Shown here in pieces: positions 601 through 43,651 of a stretch of 64,000 bases of DNA. The stretch lies in NCBI GenBank assembly GCA_020091685.1, contig CM034606.1, positions 35,049,874 through 35,113,873 on the forward strand. Direction: 5' to 3'. A model generated the notes under the pieces. That model searched no databases, was not told the origin of the DNA, and saw only the letters and a list, made by a program, of their open reading frames with translations. The stretch's first letter is position 1. Every line of letters begins with the position of its first letter. The stretch comes from Lutjanus erythropterus (taxonomy: Eukaryota; Chordata; Actinopteri; Lutjaniformes; Lutjanidae). The position numbers and the translations under genes were made by a program.

Positions 601-1820
601 AAATTAAAGGCTGAATGTGTGACAAGGTGGAAAAGAATAGAAATAGGGACAATAGACACTGAAGTACGAAATCTAATAACACATAAAGGATTATTGAACA
701 AATTAGGTAATCAATTGGATGTAATAACCAAAACTACAGTTGAAATATGGAATACAGTTGTTGAAAGGTATAAATTGGAGAAAGAGACCAAAATTCTGAG
801 CTGGTTTGCATTTGATTCTAGGTTTGTACCTGGTAGGAACGATAACGGGTTCAAGGAATGGGTGAAAAAAGGCATCACTGCAATATGCACAGTGGTTGAA
901 CGGGGTAAGCTGCAGAGTTTTGAAAAGTTAAGGGATAAATTTGGATTTGATGAACGCGAACGATATCAGTATTTACAAATGAGGGATTATTATGAGAAGG
1001 AGATAAAAACTGACAGAGACAATGAAATTATTGAGGTATTCCGGAAAGCTTATGAGGGGGGAAAATGCAGAGTAGTCTCAGCTCTATATAGAAGTTTGAT
1101 GTCATATAGAAAGACTTCCTCTCTTTACATAAAAGAAAAATGGGAAAAGGAGCTGAAGGAACAAATAACTGAGGAAGAATGGTTTAATATTTGTAAAATG
1201 CAGTGCACGTCCACTAGCTCTAGGATTTGGAGAGAATTCAATTGGAAAAATATGATCAGATTTTTTATAACTCCAAAGATTAGGAAGGAACTGGTGTTTA
1301 ACCAACAACCATGTTGGAGATCATGTGGTCACATGGATGTGCATCATACACACATATTTTGGTCTTGCCAAAAGATAAAAGGATACTGGGATAAGATATG
1401 GTGGGGTTTAAGAAAAATAATAGGATATGAGATACCCAAAACATGCAAGATACTCTACTTGGGAAATCTGACACAAAACACAATACAAAAAGAGGATGAG
1501 TACCTTGTAAAAGTACTGTTAATGGCAAGTAAAAAAGCAATTACAAGATTATGGTATAAAGTGGAACCACTGACAGAGGAGCAGTGGATGTGCATTGTGG
1601 AAGAGATATTTGTAATGGAGAAACTTACACATAAACTGAGATTACAAGAGGCACAATTTAATGAAAAATGGACTGATTATAGAACACAAGAAGAGGACAC
1701 CACCACCACCGCTGGTGACATTGACATAAGGATAACTGCTTGATGATGTATGTATGTTGCGCCCTGACAATGTAATTATAGAAGGACAATTTTCAATAAA
1801 ATATAAGTTAAAAAAAAAAT
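601..1820 (+). mobile_element. 5'-truncated L1-type LINE, C-terminal part of ORF2
   Basis: One uninterrupted frame runs from 601 to the stop at 1741-1743, about 380 codons, with no ATG at its start, so the element is cut at its 5' end. The protein looks like the region after the reverse transcriptase domain of fish L1/Tx1-like ORF2. It has the block RFFITPKIRKE, then a CCHC-like cluster (CWRSCGHMDVHHTHIFWSC) typical of the LINE zinc knuckle, then WDKIWWGLRKIIGYE. A short 3'UTR follows, with AATAAA near 1795 and an A-run at about 1810-1819. It lies in the sense orientation inside an rnf166 intron. The intact frame suggests a fairly recent insertion or one of the better preserved copies. It cannot be active without the reverse transcriptase and endonuclease portions. 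Confidence 0.85.
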
Positions 1821-24576: not shown

Positions 24577-32353
<7,777 letters not shown>

Positions 32354-36109: not shown

Positions 36110-39100
36110 TCAACATGCCTGGCTCTTCCTCTCCCAGCCTGCTCTGGGCACGGCGTTCACCTTGTACTTGGCTGGTTGGAGGACCACGCGAACTTTCCTC
36201 AAGACTGGGCAGAGAGTGGCCGGGTGGGACGGAGAGGGTGCAGCTGCAGGATCCAGGACAGGAAGAGGAAGAGCTCCATCTTGGCCAAGGCCTCGCCCAG
36301 ACACACCGTACTCCGGCACCAAACGGCAGGTAGCTGGGGACGGGATGATCAGCCCTCGCTGTTCAAGAACCGACCTGCAGAGGAGGAGCACAGGAATCAG
36401 AGTCAACACACAAGCAAAACTACAAGAATCACAGTCATGAAACCAGCATCAGTGCTGATGTCCATAGAGCTGCTACAGCACTAGCTCATATTTTGTCTGC
36501 ATGTGAAAAATATTTCAATTTTACATTTTTGTTTATTATTTTTTTAATTGATGAGTTAGATGTTAAAGAGCAGCACAAGGGAGGTCATCAGAGAAGCAGT
36601 GAGGACAAACTGCATGTGAGAATATTTTCACATCTAACACAATGAATTAAGGGTTTATTTAAACTAAACCAGAACTGGTGATTGTTGGAACAGTGGAAAG
36701 ACAAACCAAGACAGTTTTGGTGAGTTTTATTTTGTTTCTGTTGAGTTTAAATTAGTTATGTTTTGCAATGATAAAATTACTGTTTCTGTAAATGGAGTTT
36801 GGTGGCAGAGCCAGGTCGACATCCTGTTTAATATATGATTTATGGATGAAGTGACTTTCCCCCTACCCGTCTTCTCAAGACTTGAGGAAAGCTTTGCAGC
36901 TGCAGGAACACTGCAGGAGTGCAGGGCATGTTCAAGATGGTGAACTGACAGTAAGAAGCTAGGACGAGTCCTCCACTATAAGTTGATCAGCTGTTTGATC
37001 AGCCCACTGCTCTGAAACACACACTGGACTTTTAGTTCAGTTGCTGCCTGTCTCACTTCCTGCCAAACTCCATTAACAATTTTCTCAATTTAACACTTAT
37101 AAACATCTATGCATTCTACAAGATTATTAATGATTTCTTAACAGGCATGTACTTGTTCATCACACAGAGAAGTATTTCAACTTAACATGTTTGTCTCTAG
37201 CACTTTTAGTGGACGTACTTTGACAGTCGGTTATTTCCCATAATGATTACATTAAAGCCTGTTTTGCAGCAGTCTCTCTCAATACTTTACCAATTTCAGA
37301 AATTGTTGTCCCTATTAGTCACGAGACACAAAAACATGAGGAAATAGGATCCAGGTTGAAAAATGCCATTTAACAATAAAGGTACCTTTAACAAAGACAC
37401 TTGAGTGCATCTTTTCCAGGATAGAATATGGCACATCAGACAAAAGTCTCCACTCACCAGGGTCAAAGAGCTCTGGGTTTTCCATTCCTTCTCATCATGG
37501 TGCAGAGACCACAGGTTGATGATGACTCGAGTTCCTTTCCTCACTGTGAAATCCCGATGCTGCAGAGAGCATAAAGACAGAGACGAAATGGTACAGGAAC
37601 ACGGTTCTCTCAGATTTAATGTCTGCAGGTCTGAAATTCTTTTCTGTGCATGAAACAAATATTCTAAATTTTCCATCATGTCAGAGGTGAAGGATTGCCC
37701 TGAGTGTACCTGGTGTCGCTGAGGCCACATGGGGATGAAGAGGGGAGCCACGGGGCGGATCCTTAACACCTCCTGATGGTAGCCTCCAGGTAGGGCAGGC
37801 TGCCTCTGTCACTGAGCTGGGAGACCTGTCCACCCCACCTTACTGTCCAGCTCCTCCTGTATACGCTTCTGAATCTAAACACACAAAAAAACAATGTGAG
37901 AGAGAATAAAACTTTTGCTCATATATTGGCTATATGAGCACACAAGGCAAATGCCCCACCTCTCATGCACACCACTGCACCCCACCCTTACCTGTGGGTG
38001 GTGGATGAGAGCTGACTGGCCCATTTGAGCACGGTGGTGGTTGTCTCCACGCTGCTCCGAAGATGTCTCCACAGTCATGAGGTGGTCGTCAGTGAGGCCC
38101 ACAGACTCTGCACTGATCTCTGCTGTGTTGTTGTTCTCAGCGCTGCGCTTGGCTCTGAGCAGAGCGTCCAGCAGGTCCCTCTGCACGTGATCGCTGTAGT
38201 CTGCCTGCACACACACCACACACTTTTTCATTTCAAAGCAGAGGAATGTGTATGTTCAGACAGGTTGACTTGGTTGTTGAATATTATCCAATATTGTCCT
38301 TGTATTTAATATCACATATTTCCTATGCAATGTCTACTCATGAGTGCTGGATATAATGTTGTTTGATAGTTGAGAAGAGATGAACAGAGCTCCAAGATTA
38401 GAGTTGGACTGGCTCTCACCCGCTGTCCTTCTATCTGTCTGATGGTCTGTTTCATATTACTCCTCAAACTGTTTTTCATGAATTTGTACAAATGTGTGCG
38501 ATGTTACGAAGATCCAATATTAACATTTAGTTTTTGGTTTTAGGTTTTAGGTCTCAAAACCTTTATATAATGTAGGAAGATTTTTGGTAGCACTTTATTT
38601 GACATTTGACACGCTGTTATGACCATGACATGACACCTGTCATGAACATGAAATATTATTTGACCAAATACAACATTTTTTATGCTAAGTTATGCCCCAA
38701 ACAATGTCAACTTTGCATTGAAAATTACATCATTGATGAATGACACTGGTCATGGTTATGACAGTGTCATGTCAGTCTTGTGCACACTAGTTCTATCTGC
38801 AGGGCTGCCATCTGGTGCGGTATCTTAATTGCATATATCCCCTGGGAGCACCCCTCTCTTCTTCATACATGATGTTCTGCACAGCTTCAAATAAACTTCT
38901 TGGAAGTTTCTGAAAAACAATCCTGTGATTTGGCACTAATAAGAGAACAATGTTCTGATACAGTATCCAGTCATTTATTTTCAGTTTTTAAAAAGAACCA
39001 GGTAGGAACATAGAACAGCATAGCTGTTGAGTTCCAGAGAAATTCCCTTGAAAAACTGCTGAAACCTTAAATGGGTCTTTGACAGAGACCCATTTAAACC

Positions 39101-39790: not shown

Positions 39791-39915
39791 ATTAGCAACT
39801 GTACCTTGTGTTTATCATATTGATTCTGTAGAAGTTCATCTCTGACTGCAACACACTGCTTTAGGAGACGCAGGTCTGCATTGGGAAAAATCTGTGACAA
39901 ACAGACAGATGTAAG

Positions 39916-39963
<48 letters not shown>

Positions 39964-42900
39964 TATACAGTGTGATATATAAAATAATCACTCTATTATA
40001 TTATCTATACACATTTTATGACTAACATAATCTCTATAATCAGTTTGTTGTCATTCTCATTCTCTTCTTTCATTCCCCCATGGTCCCTCTTATTTGAATC
40101 CAGAGTTGAGGATGATCATATTAGGATTAAATATCCCATTTTACCAAAGCATTAAAGGGACAGTTCACCCCATAATCAAAAACACATTTTTTCCCCTCTG
40201 GCATGTAGTGCTGTTTATTATCTAGATAGTTTTGGTGTGAGCTGCAGAGTTTTGGAGGTATCAGCTGTAGAGATGTCTGCCTTTGCTCCAATATAATGGG
40301 ACTAAAAGGCACTCGGCTTGTGGTGCTAAAAGTACCAAAAAATCCATTTTAAAAAAACAAAACAAAACTAGTGTCCCTTTCTTCCTCTCTGCAGTAGAAT
40401 GTACCAGAACTACTTTTTAAGTAGTTCCTACATAAAACTGCTCACAAGGTCTGTGGCTTATCTTCACCAATCAGGTCATGATTTTCAGAAAGAGAGACTG
40501 GTTTTGAATTTTTCAAATGTATTTTTTAGTGCTTTGAGCACCATGAACTGAGTGCCATTCAGTCCTATTATATTGGCTAGAAGCAACTCACACCAAAACT
40601 ATCTAGATGGAACAGCACCGAAGGCCAGGGGACAAATATGTTTTTTTGATTTTGACTGTCCCTTTAACTAACAAGTCCATATAAATTAGTATAACTGCAT
40701 TTTATACTACAAAATGTACAGTGCACAGTACATATTTGACATACATATCTTATAGGATTAATGAAGTATTAATAACATTGATTATATACTCATGATGCAC
40801 ATTTAAATGTGTTCCTGTACATCTGCTCTATGTCCTGTGTGTCCCTAAGTGTTGATGTAGTCTACCTGTAACCATGGGAAGATGTCCACCAGGCTGTCCT
40901 TTGCCACCGTGTCCACGATGCCCTGGCTGTACTGCAGCATGGACTCAAACTCAGGGTCTCCTCTGCGGTAGGACGAGTTGAAGCAGAGTGAACAGATGAC
41001 GTTGGTGACGGCTCGCGTCAGCTCAGGAGACAGATCCAGGGCCAGTCCAACGGCCGCTGCCTCAGACAGGACGGAGCACAGAGACTGAGCCTCTGCACAG
41101 ACTGAGCAGGACACAGGAGACAGAGCAGCTTCACCTACTGACATGTTTACAGTCCCTACACTCTGAAACATTAATGTATTTTTACTCTATACTGTGTGTG
41201 TATCAAAGACTCATACATCATATAATCTCACACACAGTGCCCTGCTGCCTAAATACACAACAGACCACCAAATGTGGATTAATCCGCCAATGAAAATAGT
41301 CCACAACAAATGCACTACTCCACTTTGTTAAAAAACCACAGTGTTATTTAGGAAATGTCTAAGCCTTTTTAAAGGAACAATTCACCCCAAAATCAAAAAT
41401 ACATATTTTCTACATATTTTACCAGAGAGATTCTACTAGAAAAAAAAAAAGTAGTTCTGGTAGATTCTCCTGTAGTAAGAAAGTAGTTCCTATATGAAAC
41501 TGCTCATAACAACCATGTCATGATTTTTGGAAAGAGACATTGCTTTTTTCAGATATATTCTTTGGTGCATTGAGCTCCACAGGACCAGTGCAATGTAGTT
41601 CCATTATATTAGAGAGAAGACAGACAACTTTGCAGCTGATATCTCCAAAACTCTGCAGCTCACATCAAAACAGTATAGATGGATAACAGCACCACAGGCC
41701 AGAGGAAAAATTCTGTACTTTTTAATTTTGGGTGACAACAGCATTTGAGAGTCCTGGGTTATACAGCACATTATAATGACCATAACTTCAGCCAGTTATA
41801 GAGACACATAGAGAACTGTCCCTACGCATCATAACAGATTTTATGTTTCTGAAAAGGCATAACGTCTTATAAACATCACACAATCACCAATTATCTTACT
41901 CACAGATATCATTTACATACTTAAATCTCACAAAGCCATGGTATAGGATATTATTGATGTTGTTAAGACATTATTCCATTTAAGAAATTTTGAATTTATA
42001 ATCTGTTATGATATATTATAAATGCTAAATTTATAATATATAATGTCCACCACTTAATATACTTTAGAAACTCTGTTATAAGTTGTCGTGCATAATTAGA
42101 CTTAAAAAGAGTTTTATAAAGCCCTATACATTATAAAGTATTACAAATGAGCTTATAATGCATTATAGACATTACAGACATGACATGACCTTCATAGAGA
42201 GTGTTATCCTTTACTGCCTCTGATTAGTTTTTATTTACATTACTCCCAAAGATGTGTGCCACTGTGGACAATATGAATAAGGAGAACAGAAGTAATTTTA
42301 AAATGCAAATGACAATGTCAAAAGTTAAAGGGCTGGTACACTCAAATTACAATCACATCTCAACAGTTTTTACTAGATGTTTTTTCTTTTGGTTGAAAGT
42401 CATTTTAATATAAAGGGTTTACAGTGAAGTCCAGAGTATCAGGGGCACTGTGTCTGGAAAGTATGGAAGAGTATTAGTGCCAGGCATAAGATTTAAAAAA
42501 AATGAGAGGAGGAAGAATGTTTTAATTTTGTAATTCAAGACGAAAGTTGAAATATCAGAAGTGGGAACACGTCATTGTTTTGTGAGTCCAAAGACCTAAA
42601 CTTTAGTCCAAGTCAAGTTGCAAGTCTTTTTGTGGAATTTGTCAAATGCAGGTGGGGGTGATTGCCTCTCTAGTAGCCCCATGTTAAAAAATGCTGTAAA
42701 AGTACCCTCTTTGTTGCCCCTAAGGTAGATACAACATGTTAAATGCCCCCTACAGCCCTTCTAGTTGACAAAATGCAGTAAAGTGCCTTCTAAGGTGGCC
42801 ATGTAGGGGACAAAGTGAAGCACATCACGACTTTCAGTGAGCTGGGGCCCTCATTTTTTTGCCCATGACCCTTGGACAGCCTGAGCCTGCCACTGGAGAG

Positions 42901-43651
42901 ACATATAACTATTGAGACAGTGGCATAAATCTCAGAGACAGATATCTCAGAAACTGGACAATTTAACACCACTGTAGTGAAGGGAGACAGCAAACTGTGG
43001 TACAAAATATCAGGGCTGCAATTTAAAAAAGTATATACAGATTATAAGCCTCATGTTAAGTGAGAGGAGTCATACTGGAGGAGTATAGAGGGAACTGTAC
43101 TTACTGATCTTCTCTATGGAGGCTGAGCCCTCTCCAAACATGCACAGAGCTCCATGGACTATTTTCCTGTGGAACCTCCAGGTAGGACTGTAGTCTCCAA
43201 ATGCGATGTCTTTCCCATCTCTGGTCAGGACGTCTGTGGTCACCTTCATCACACACAGGACAGGGTGGAGAAGGAAAAAATAATGAAGACGACAGCTAAT
43301 ATAGAGAAGAAGACAATGAGTTAGAAGTATACCCACAGTTCTGGGTCTTCCTGCAAATATCTTGCCCTTCTTCAGCAGGACTTCTTTGGCGTGTGTGTGC
43401 TGGTTGACGATGATGGCACAGTGGGGGCCCATCATCAGAGAGTACGTCGGTCCATATTTCTCTTGCAGCTGTTTGAACAACACATGAGGAGGGTGGGGGC
43501 TCCGCAGGCTCAGCAGGCTGCCGATCAGGGGCAGTGCCAGCAGGCTGGGGGGCTCCTGAGGGCCCCGTGCGGACGTCCTGAGCTTCAGCTGCAGCGCTAA
43601 CAAAGCCAGGCCCACAGACAGGAACACACAGAGACACAGAAACCAGGCCAT
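36110..43651 (-). CDS. cyp17a1: Cytochrome P450 17A1, steroid 17-alpha-hydroxylase/17,20-lyase; 3' half frame-broken in this sequence
   Basis: Eight exons: 43337-43651 (ATG at 43651), 43105-43243, 40866-41101, 39805-39891, 37992-38204, 37710-37874, 37458-37559 and 36110-36374 (TGA at 36110-36112). The enzyme is an ER-membrane P450 converting pregnenolone and progesterone toward androgens. Residues 1-25 form a hydrophobic anchor, followed by the [16 protein letters not shown] proline-rich hinge. [19 protein letters not shown] and [18 protein letters not shown]-like blocks are typical of CYP17. Exons 1-4 are clean. In exons 5-8 single bases are missing at many G/C runs, which breaks the frame through the I-helix GDIFGAG...ETTTT segment, the ETIR/EVLRIRP region and the heme-binding FGAG...CLGEA loop. 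Every fragment is otherwise highly conserved, so assembly error is more likely than true decay. The paralogue cyp17a2 is the main alternative; linkage to borcs7 and nt5c2 supports a1. Confidence 0.82.
38586..39632. mobile_element. DNA transposon remnant with GGTARCACTTT inverted ends
   Basis: The left end GGTAGCACTTTATTTGAC and the right end GTCATAGAAAGTGTTACC are imperfect inverted repeats in a cyp17a1 intron. The right third (TTATAATGCATTATAAG) belongs to the family at 8005-8790. The middle contains GGGGGCATGTCAGAAAGTTT near 39248, also found near 21995, so it is probably composite. Confidence 0.55.
39733..39787. repeat. (CA)n microsatellite
   Basis: About 27 CA units 18 bases from the 3' border of cyp17a1 exon 4, on the intron side. 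Confidence 0.95.
39919..39966. repeat. (TA)n microsatellite
   Basis: About 20 TA units shortly upstream of cyp17a1 exon 4 in the gene's own direction, in intron 3. Confidence 0.9.
40156..40663. mobile_element. MITE, AGGGACAGTTC family, complete
   Basis: Bounded by TTAA at 40152-40155 and 40664-40667. The left end AGGGACAGTTCACCCC and the right end GACTGTCCCT are inverted repeats. The interior phrase CTAGATAGTTTTGGTGTGAG recurs in the copies at 34384, 41373 and 48240. The TTAA target is typical of piggyBac- or Kolobok-type transposases; I cannot choose between them. Confidence 0.75.
41373..41748. mobile_element. MITE, AGGGACAGTTC family, decayed copy
   Basis: Starts after TTAA (41369-41372) with AGGAACAATTCACCCC. 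The interior matches 40156-40663, and its right end has lost the inverted repeat. Confidence 0.6.
41750..42215. repeat. AT-rich palindromic repeat (TTATAATGCATTATA family)
   Basis: Shares AGAGACACATAGAGAACTG and TAATGCATTATAGACATTAC-type sequence with 8220-8780. It ends CTTCATAGAGAGTGTTATC. Confidence 0.6.

What the first reader, a model, noticed from the sequence alone, without database searches (positions are those of the whole stretch)
36110..38204. About twenty missing bases, nearly all in G/C runs, confined to exons 5-8 of cyp17a1
Exons 1-4 of cyp17a1 and all other genes in the window read cleanly. Exons 5-8 do not. At many points a run of G or C appears one base short of what the conserved protein requires. 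Examples are GTGGGGTGGAC where GVD is expected, ATCCCCATGTGG where IPHVA is expected, CGGTGTGTCTG where the heme loop needs VRVCLG, and TTCGCGTGG where F-G/A-V is expected. The residues between breaks are otherwise well conserved and all splice borders are intact. The exons sum to 1522 nt; adding about 20 gives a whole number of codons and a protein of about 513 residues, normal for the family. This favours a locally unpolished long-read consensus over a pseudogene. If real, this fish would lack the 17-hydroxylase heme site.
Basis: partly seen in the sequence, partly recalled or inferred. Interest (0 to 1): 0.75.

Follow-up and report, generated by a model that had tools for sequence, protein, structure and literature searches.

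The report
Consensus errors in fish cyp17a1 exons
Half of a fish steroid-hormone gene looks shattered in this genome assembly, but the pattern of missing single letters is that of sequencing-consensus mistakes rather than of a gene that evolution has lost, so the fish most likely has a normal enzyme.

Summary
The breaks are in the sequence. Aligned to zebrafish Cyp17a1, the spliced exons (1522 nt) carry 16 frame breaks, about 17 missing nt, all in exons 5-8 (3, 5, 2, 6) and none in exons 1-4; 7 of 7 introns keep GT-AG borders. Ordinary mutation does not explain them. Neutral repeats of the same genome show 43 small deletions and 65 small insertions per 2438 substitutions; exons 5-8 show nearly pure loss, no stop in the aligned frame, and 78% identity to zebrafish against 75% for exons 1-4. 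The same signature occurs in another gene cluster of the assembly: two protocadherin exons differ by 26 substitutions and 21 gaps of 1-2 nt over 1168 nt. I conclude: uncorrected consensus error over an intact gene. Reads would settle it; none were available. Low biological interest; useful as an assembly warning.

The parts
43337..43651 (-). cyp17a1 exon 1, frame intact
43105..43243 (-). cyp17a1 exon 2, frame intact
40866..41101 (-). cyp17a1 exon 3, frame intact (58.9% G+C)
39805..39891 (-). cyp17a1 exon 4, frame intact
37992..38204 (-). cyp17a1 exon 5, 3 frame breaks (38072, 38052, 38017); a codon also absent near 38082
37710..37874 (-). cyp17a1 exon 6, 5 frame breaks (37832, 37818, 37774, 37736, 37725)
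37458..37559 (-). cyp17a1 exon 7, 2 frame breaks (37552, 37481)
36110..36374 (-). cyp17a1 exon 8 with the heme loop, 6 frame breaks (36351, 36337, 36305, 36243, 36200, 36189) and the stop codon
36565..37373 (-). repeat-derived stretches of intron 7 (36565-36806, 36812-37140, 37201-37373), small-deletion rate at background: 2 in 739 aligned nt

Best explanation
The gene is an ordinary, intact cyp17a1 whose exons 5-8 carry uncorrected small-loss errors of the assembly's consensus. Shown: the breaks, their one-sidedness, the conserved residues between them, their clash with this genome's own mutation spectrum, and the same signature in a protocadherin cluster of the same assembly. Inferred: that noisy long reads made the errors and that later correction failed at these exons. 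A possible reason for the exon restriction, built on the Vertebrate Genomes Project account: correcting reads were drawn to a better copy of the other haplotype where the haplotypes are alike (exons), while introns, where they differ, were corrected.
For: 16 breaks in 745 nt of exons 5-8 and 0 in 777 nt of exons 1-4. Identity to zebrafish 178 of 229 residues in exons 5-8, 171 of 228 in exons 1-4. No stop in the aligned frame at 4 of 4 penalty settings. Neutral repeats of this genome: 43 small deletions and 65 small insertions per 2438 substitutions over 16302 nt. Mild excess in G/C runs. Same signature in protocadherin exons: 20 of 56 PF08266 matches, at 15 places, in frames under 135 aa; one pair compared, 26 substitutions and 21 gaps of 1-2 nt over 1168 nt. 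Published precedent: TLK1 frameshifts in a locus left unpolished (PMC8081667, passages, section 13).
Against: Repeat-derived intron 7 is at background although both neighbouring exons are damaged, which a plain unpolished stretch does not predict. Exons 1 and 3, and NT5C2 exons of 59 and 62% G+C, are clean, so G+C content does not explain the choice of exons. No gap (N) lies within the window or 50 kb either side. No reads, no second assembly, technology unknown. Whole-assembly quality was sampled only in part; the GPCR survey (149 of 150 matches without a stop) is biased, 147 of 1510 candidates having been scored.
Confidence: 0.93

Rival explanations
1. A true pseudogene: this fish lost Cyp17a1 and exons 5-8 decayed by mutation.
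For: The frame is broken 16 times and no second cyp17a1 was found in the assembly. A cyp17a2 gene, clean over the part tested, is present.
Against: In this genome's neutral repeats small deletions run at about 1 per 57 substitutions and are not commoner than small insertions; 16 losses would bring hundreds of substitutions and many insertions. Residues are as conserved as in exons 1-4 and no stop lies in the aligned frame. Exons 1-4 are untouched and 7 of 7 intron borders are intact.
Confidence: 0.02
2. The exon errors came from noisy transcript reads used in correction or patching: such reads cover exons only and are often truncated at the 5' end, which would give damage in the 3' exons 5-8 and clean introns and 5' exons.
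For: Damage lies in the 3' half of the transcript and seems to stop at exon borders.
Against: Not a usual assembly step (recalled). The 3' exons of NT5C2 in the same window are clean. Nothing is known here about the pipeline.
Confidence: 0.03
3. The losses are real in the DNA and arose by an unknown process that removes single bases from exons only, with the frame restored in the message or the protein not made.
For: Losses but no decay of residues and apparent restriction to exons.
Against: No such process is known in fish (recalled). The same signature in a protocadherin array, the kind of repeated cluster where assemblies are weak, points to a technical cause.
Confidence: 0.02

Closest known systems
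Frameshift errors in loci left unpolished in long-read assemblies, such as TLK1 in the Anna's hummingbird assembly (PMC8081667, passages and section 13 read)
   Same: Short indels break the frame of a real gene in an otherwise good chromosome-scale assembly.
   Different: There a whole locus was left unpolished because reads went to the other haplotype; here intron 7 between damaged exons looks clean, and neither reads nor technology are known.
False indels in GC-rich exons of earlier assemblies, such as PCDH17 in zebra finch (PMC9516821, passages read)
   Same: False small indels in coding exons, there also in a protocadherin.
   Different: Those were false insertions in a 5' exon of an older assembly; here losses in the 3' exons, while equally GC-rich exons 1 and 3 are clean.
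Zebrafish Cyp17a1 (PDB 6b82)
   Same: Best match: 793.8 bits against 522.8 for zebrafish Cyp17a2; 349 of 457 compared residues identical.
   Different: The window's frame is broken in exons 5-8; the query had X at the breaks.

Membership tests
cyp17a1 ortholog | Closer to Cyp17a1 than to Cyp17a2 | tested here: met
   793.8 against 522.8 bits
cyp17a1 ortholog | Heme-binding loop in one open frame (signature recalled) | tested here: not met
   The loop residues are encoded on both sides of a break at 36305; as assembled the frame is broken there. This bears on the assembled copy, not on orthology.
Assembly consensus error | Small indels far in excess of what substitutions allow | tested here: met
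   16 in 745 nt with residues as conserved as in exons 1-4, against 108 small indels per 2438 substitutions in neutral repeats
Assembly consensus error | Losses tied to homopolymers | tested here: inconclusive
   7 of 14 can lie in a G/C run of 3 or more; P 0.013 and 0.049
Assembly consensus error | Same signature elsewhere in the assembly | tested here: met
   Protocadherin cluster on C8, one pair compared
Assembly consensus error | Accurate reads lack the losses | not testable with these tools
   No reads on hand
Continuous unpolished stretch 36110-38204 | Errors in introns as well as exons | tested here: not met
   2 small deletions in 739 aligned nt of intron 7, background rate; 15.9 expected at the exon rate, P 1.8e-5. 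Introns 5 and 6 not testable
Pseudogene | Broken reading frame | tested here: met
   16 breaks
Pseudogene | Relaxed constraint: substituted residues, stops | tested here: not met
   178 of 229 against 171 of 228 identical residues; no stop in the aligned frame
Pseudogene | Indels in the genome's own proportions | tested here: not met
   At least 15 of 16 are losses, while neutral repeats show 43 small deletions and 65 small insertions

The most novel reading that the evidence does not exclude
The losses are real: the gene's 3' exons, and only exons, lost single bases while their residues and borders stayed conserved, so the animal either lacks Cyp17a1 and lives on Cyp17a2, or makes the protein through an unknown correction of the message.
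Probability: 0.03. Interest if true: 0.85.

Novelty: not a real feature. Interest (0 to 1): 0.12.

Why it matters
Taken at face value the sequence would say that a fish lacks an enzyme of androgen and oestrogen synthesis; abstract beginnings seen in the listing report all-male development with compromised androgen and oestrogen synthesis in cyp17a1-deficient zebrafish (PMC10919652) and only 17-alpha-hydroxylase activity for Cyp17a2 (PMC9207535). Marking this as an error guards against a false claim of gene loss. The protocadherin cluster shows that the fault is not unique to this gene, so other gene models of this assembly need checking. The apparent restriction to exons is a small open puzzle about how assembly correction fails.

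Tried and rejected
Run-length statistics of the exons as read were uninformative: 23 G/C runs of 3 or more in exons 5-8 against 26.3 expected. A tally of contracted runs by length (4 of 73 pairs, 5 of 21 triplets, 2 of 4 quadruplets, 3 of 3 quintuplets) looks striking, but I placed each loss by hand, so I rest on the calibrated test. The P of 0.002 for contracted G/C runs in intron 7 rests on the same hand placement. The GPCR survey is biased to intact genes. Comparing L088 with L089 at the protein level was too distant (333 of 751 residues identical) to count losses, and gave gains as well as losses; the DNA comparison with L090 replaced it. In one search a first repeat alignment with 20 loci showed single-base insertions for most copies, an effect of that alignment; with 39 loci replaced it. 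Listings on cyp17a1 with pseudogene and teleost (8 papers), gap filling errors (1 paper), long-read errors (12 of 75 listed) and cyp17a1 or assembly errors in fish (15 of 179 listed) held no title on this case; apart from PMC8081667 and PMC9516821, of which I read passages and one section, none was opened. A second copy of cyp17a1 was sought and not found.

Full report
What is there. The window belongs to an assembly held as G000 (937,629,617 bases in 444 contigs; window at C16:35049874-35113873); that it is a fish is inferred from its genes. On the minus strand lies cyp17a1 in eight exons: 43651-43337, 43243-43105, 41101-40866, 39891-39805, 38204-37992, 37874-37710, 37559-37458 and 36374-36110, 1522 nt in all, with GT-AG borders at 7 of 7 introns. 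A query of its residues, with X at the breaks, matches zebrafish Cyp17a1 (PDB 6b82) with 793.8 bits and zebrafish Cyp17a2 (4r20) with 522.8, so it is cyp17a1 and not cyp17a2.

The breaks. I aligned the spliced exons to the zebrafish protein with a program that allows losses and gains of one or two bases. It finds 16 breaks, all in exons 5-8: three in exon 5, five in exon 6, two in exon 7, six in exon 8. Fourteen are single-base losses, one is a two-base loss (36243), and one (36351) lies in a variable loop; the program scores it +2, but -1 with a shorter loop gives the same frame. Penalties of 8, 12 and 16 give 16, 14 and 12 breaks, in exons 5-8 only; a lax penalty of 5 gives 21, three of them in a variable loop of exon 3 and some as compensating pairs. 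Seventeen nt restore 1539 nt, 513 codons; one further codon is absent near 38082. None in the 777 nt of exons 1-4 has probability 5.7e-8 at the exon 5-8 rate.

Not a pseudogene. Residues between the breaks are as well kept as in the intact half: 178 of 229 identical to zebrafish in exons 5-8, 171 of 228 in exons 1-4 (residues at breaks and gaps left out). No stop codon lies in the aligned frame at any of four settings with a low stop penalty. I then measured how this genome mutates when unconstrained. Intron 7 holds pieces of interspersed repeats with many copies (84 matches, 40 of 7868 candidates scored; I used 39 fetched loci). Against their consensus, 84 aligned copy pieces (49, 8 and 27 for the three repeat pieces; two arms of one locus count apart) show 2438 substitutions, 43 deletions and 65 insertions of 1-2 nt over 16302 aligned nt. 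Small losses are about 1 per 57 substitutions, and not commoner than small gains. Sixteen losses by mutation in 745 nt should come with hundreds of substitutions and many insertions. They do not.

Context. Exon 1-2 DNA occurs once in the assembly, and a search with zebrafish exons 5-8 gave 77 matches with no second cyp17a1 among them (the closest other, on C23, is cyp17a2). That cyp17a2 gene aligns over query residues 118-459 without a frame break; its first exons were not in the fetched stretch. Other genes of the window were seen as open frames but not aligned.

The same fault elsewhere. In a search for the first protocadherin domain (PF08266), 20 of 56 matches, at 15 places of the C8 cluster (21.208-21.250 and 21.328-21.353 Mb), lie in open frames under 135 aa, some split between frames inside the domain; other matches of that cluster mostly have frames of 755 aa or more, with 394 and 559 aa at two places. 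Two of the broken exons, L088 and L090, are nearly alike in their 3' halves: over 1168 aligned nt there are 26 substitutions but 21 gaps of 1-2 nt, 13 missing in one and 8 in the other; in the 5' halves the figures are 269 and 17 over 1198 nt. A ratio near 1:1 is not mutational in this genome. I compared one pair only, and there the gaps are not confined to G/C. The GPCR survey found 149 of 150 matches free of stops but is biased, 147 of 1510 candidates having been scored.

What does not fit the simple story. The repeat-derived stretches of intron 7, 739 aligned nt between damaged exons 7 and 8, carry 2 small deletions, the background rate. At the exon rate 15.9 would be expected, P 1.8e-5; counting only contracted G/C runs of two or more, P 0.002, which rests on hand placement of the losses. 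Small indels next to other differences can be hidden by alignment, and introns 5 and 6 could not be tested. Still, the errors seem to end at exon borders, and exons 1 and 3 with 58-59% G+C are clean. The Vertebrate Genomes Project paper (PMC8081667; section 13 read, other passages) says that short indels from consensus calling of long reads were the commonest errors before polishing, and that one haplotype was sometimes left at lower quality because reads aligned to the better one; its example is TLK1. If haplotypes are alike in exons and differ in introns, this could leave exons uncorrected and introns corrected. That step is my inference; the technology of this assembly is unknown.

On G/C runs. 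Of 14 single-base losses tested, 7 have among their equally good placements one in a G/C run of three or more, 2 sit in a G/C pair, 1 in an A run and 4 in no run. Against random losses in exons 1-3 treated alike, the excess has P 0.013 (share in G/C runs of 3 or more) and 0.049 (mean run length). The tie is real but weaker than stated.

Verdict. Consensus error over an intact gene, 0.93. Ordinary biology; useful as a warning about this assembly.

Noticed in passing
G000:C8:21208625-21353142 (L088, L090): Protocadherin cluster with 15 places of broken frames and an indel-to-substitution ratio near 1:1 in the one pair compared: a likely second patch of consensus error.
   Followed up: partly
G000:C8:21113223-21138671: Seven protocadherin matches exactly 4200 bp apart with identical scores: a very recent tandem duplication or a false one made in assembly.
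   Followed up: no
G000:C93:4772-7591 and C14:38201737-38204557: Two P450 matches of identical score on a small contig and on C14: a retained haplotig or a duplication.
   Followed up: no
window 36565-37140 (intron 7): Repeat whose copies elsewhere often sit back to back in opposite orientation, as in fold-back elements.
   Followed up: no
window 26450-26915: TA-rich tandem array of about 466 bp that yields spurious open frames on both strands.
   Followed up: no
window 601-1740: Open frame of 380 codons that looks like the end of a LINE-type reverse-transcriptase protein; label recalled, no search made.
   Followed up: no
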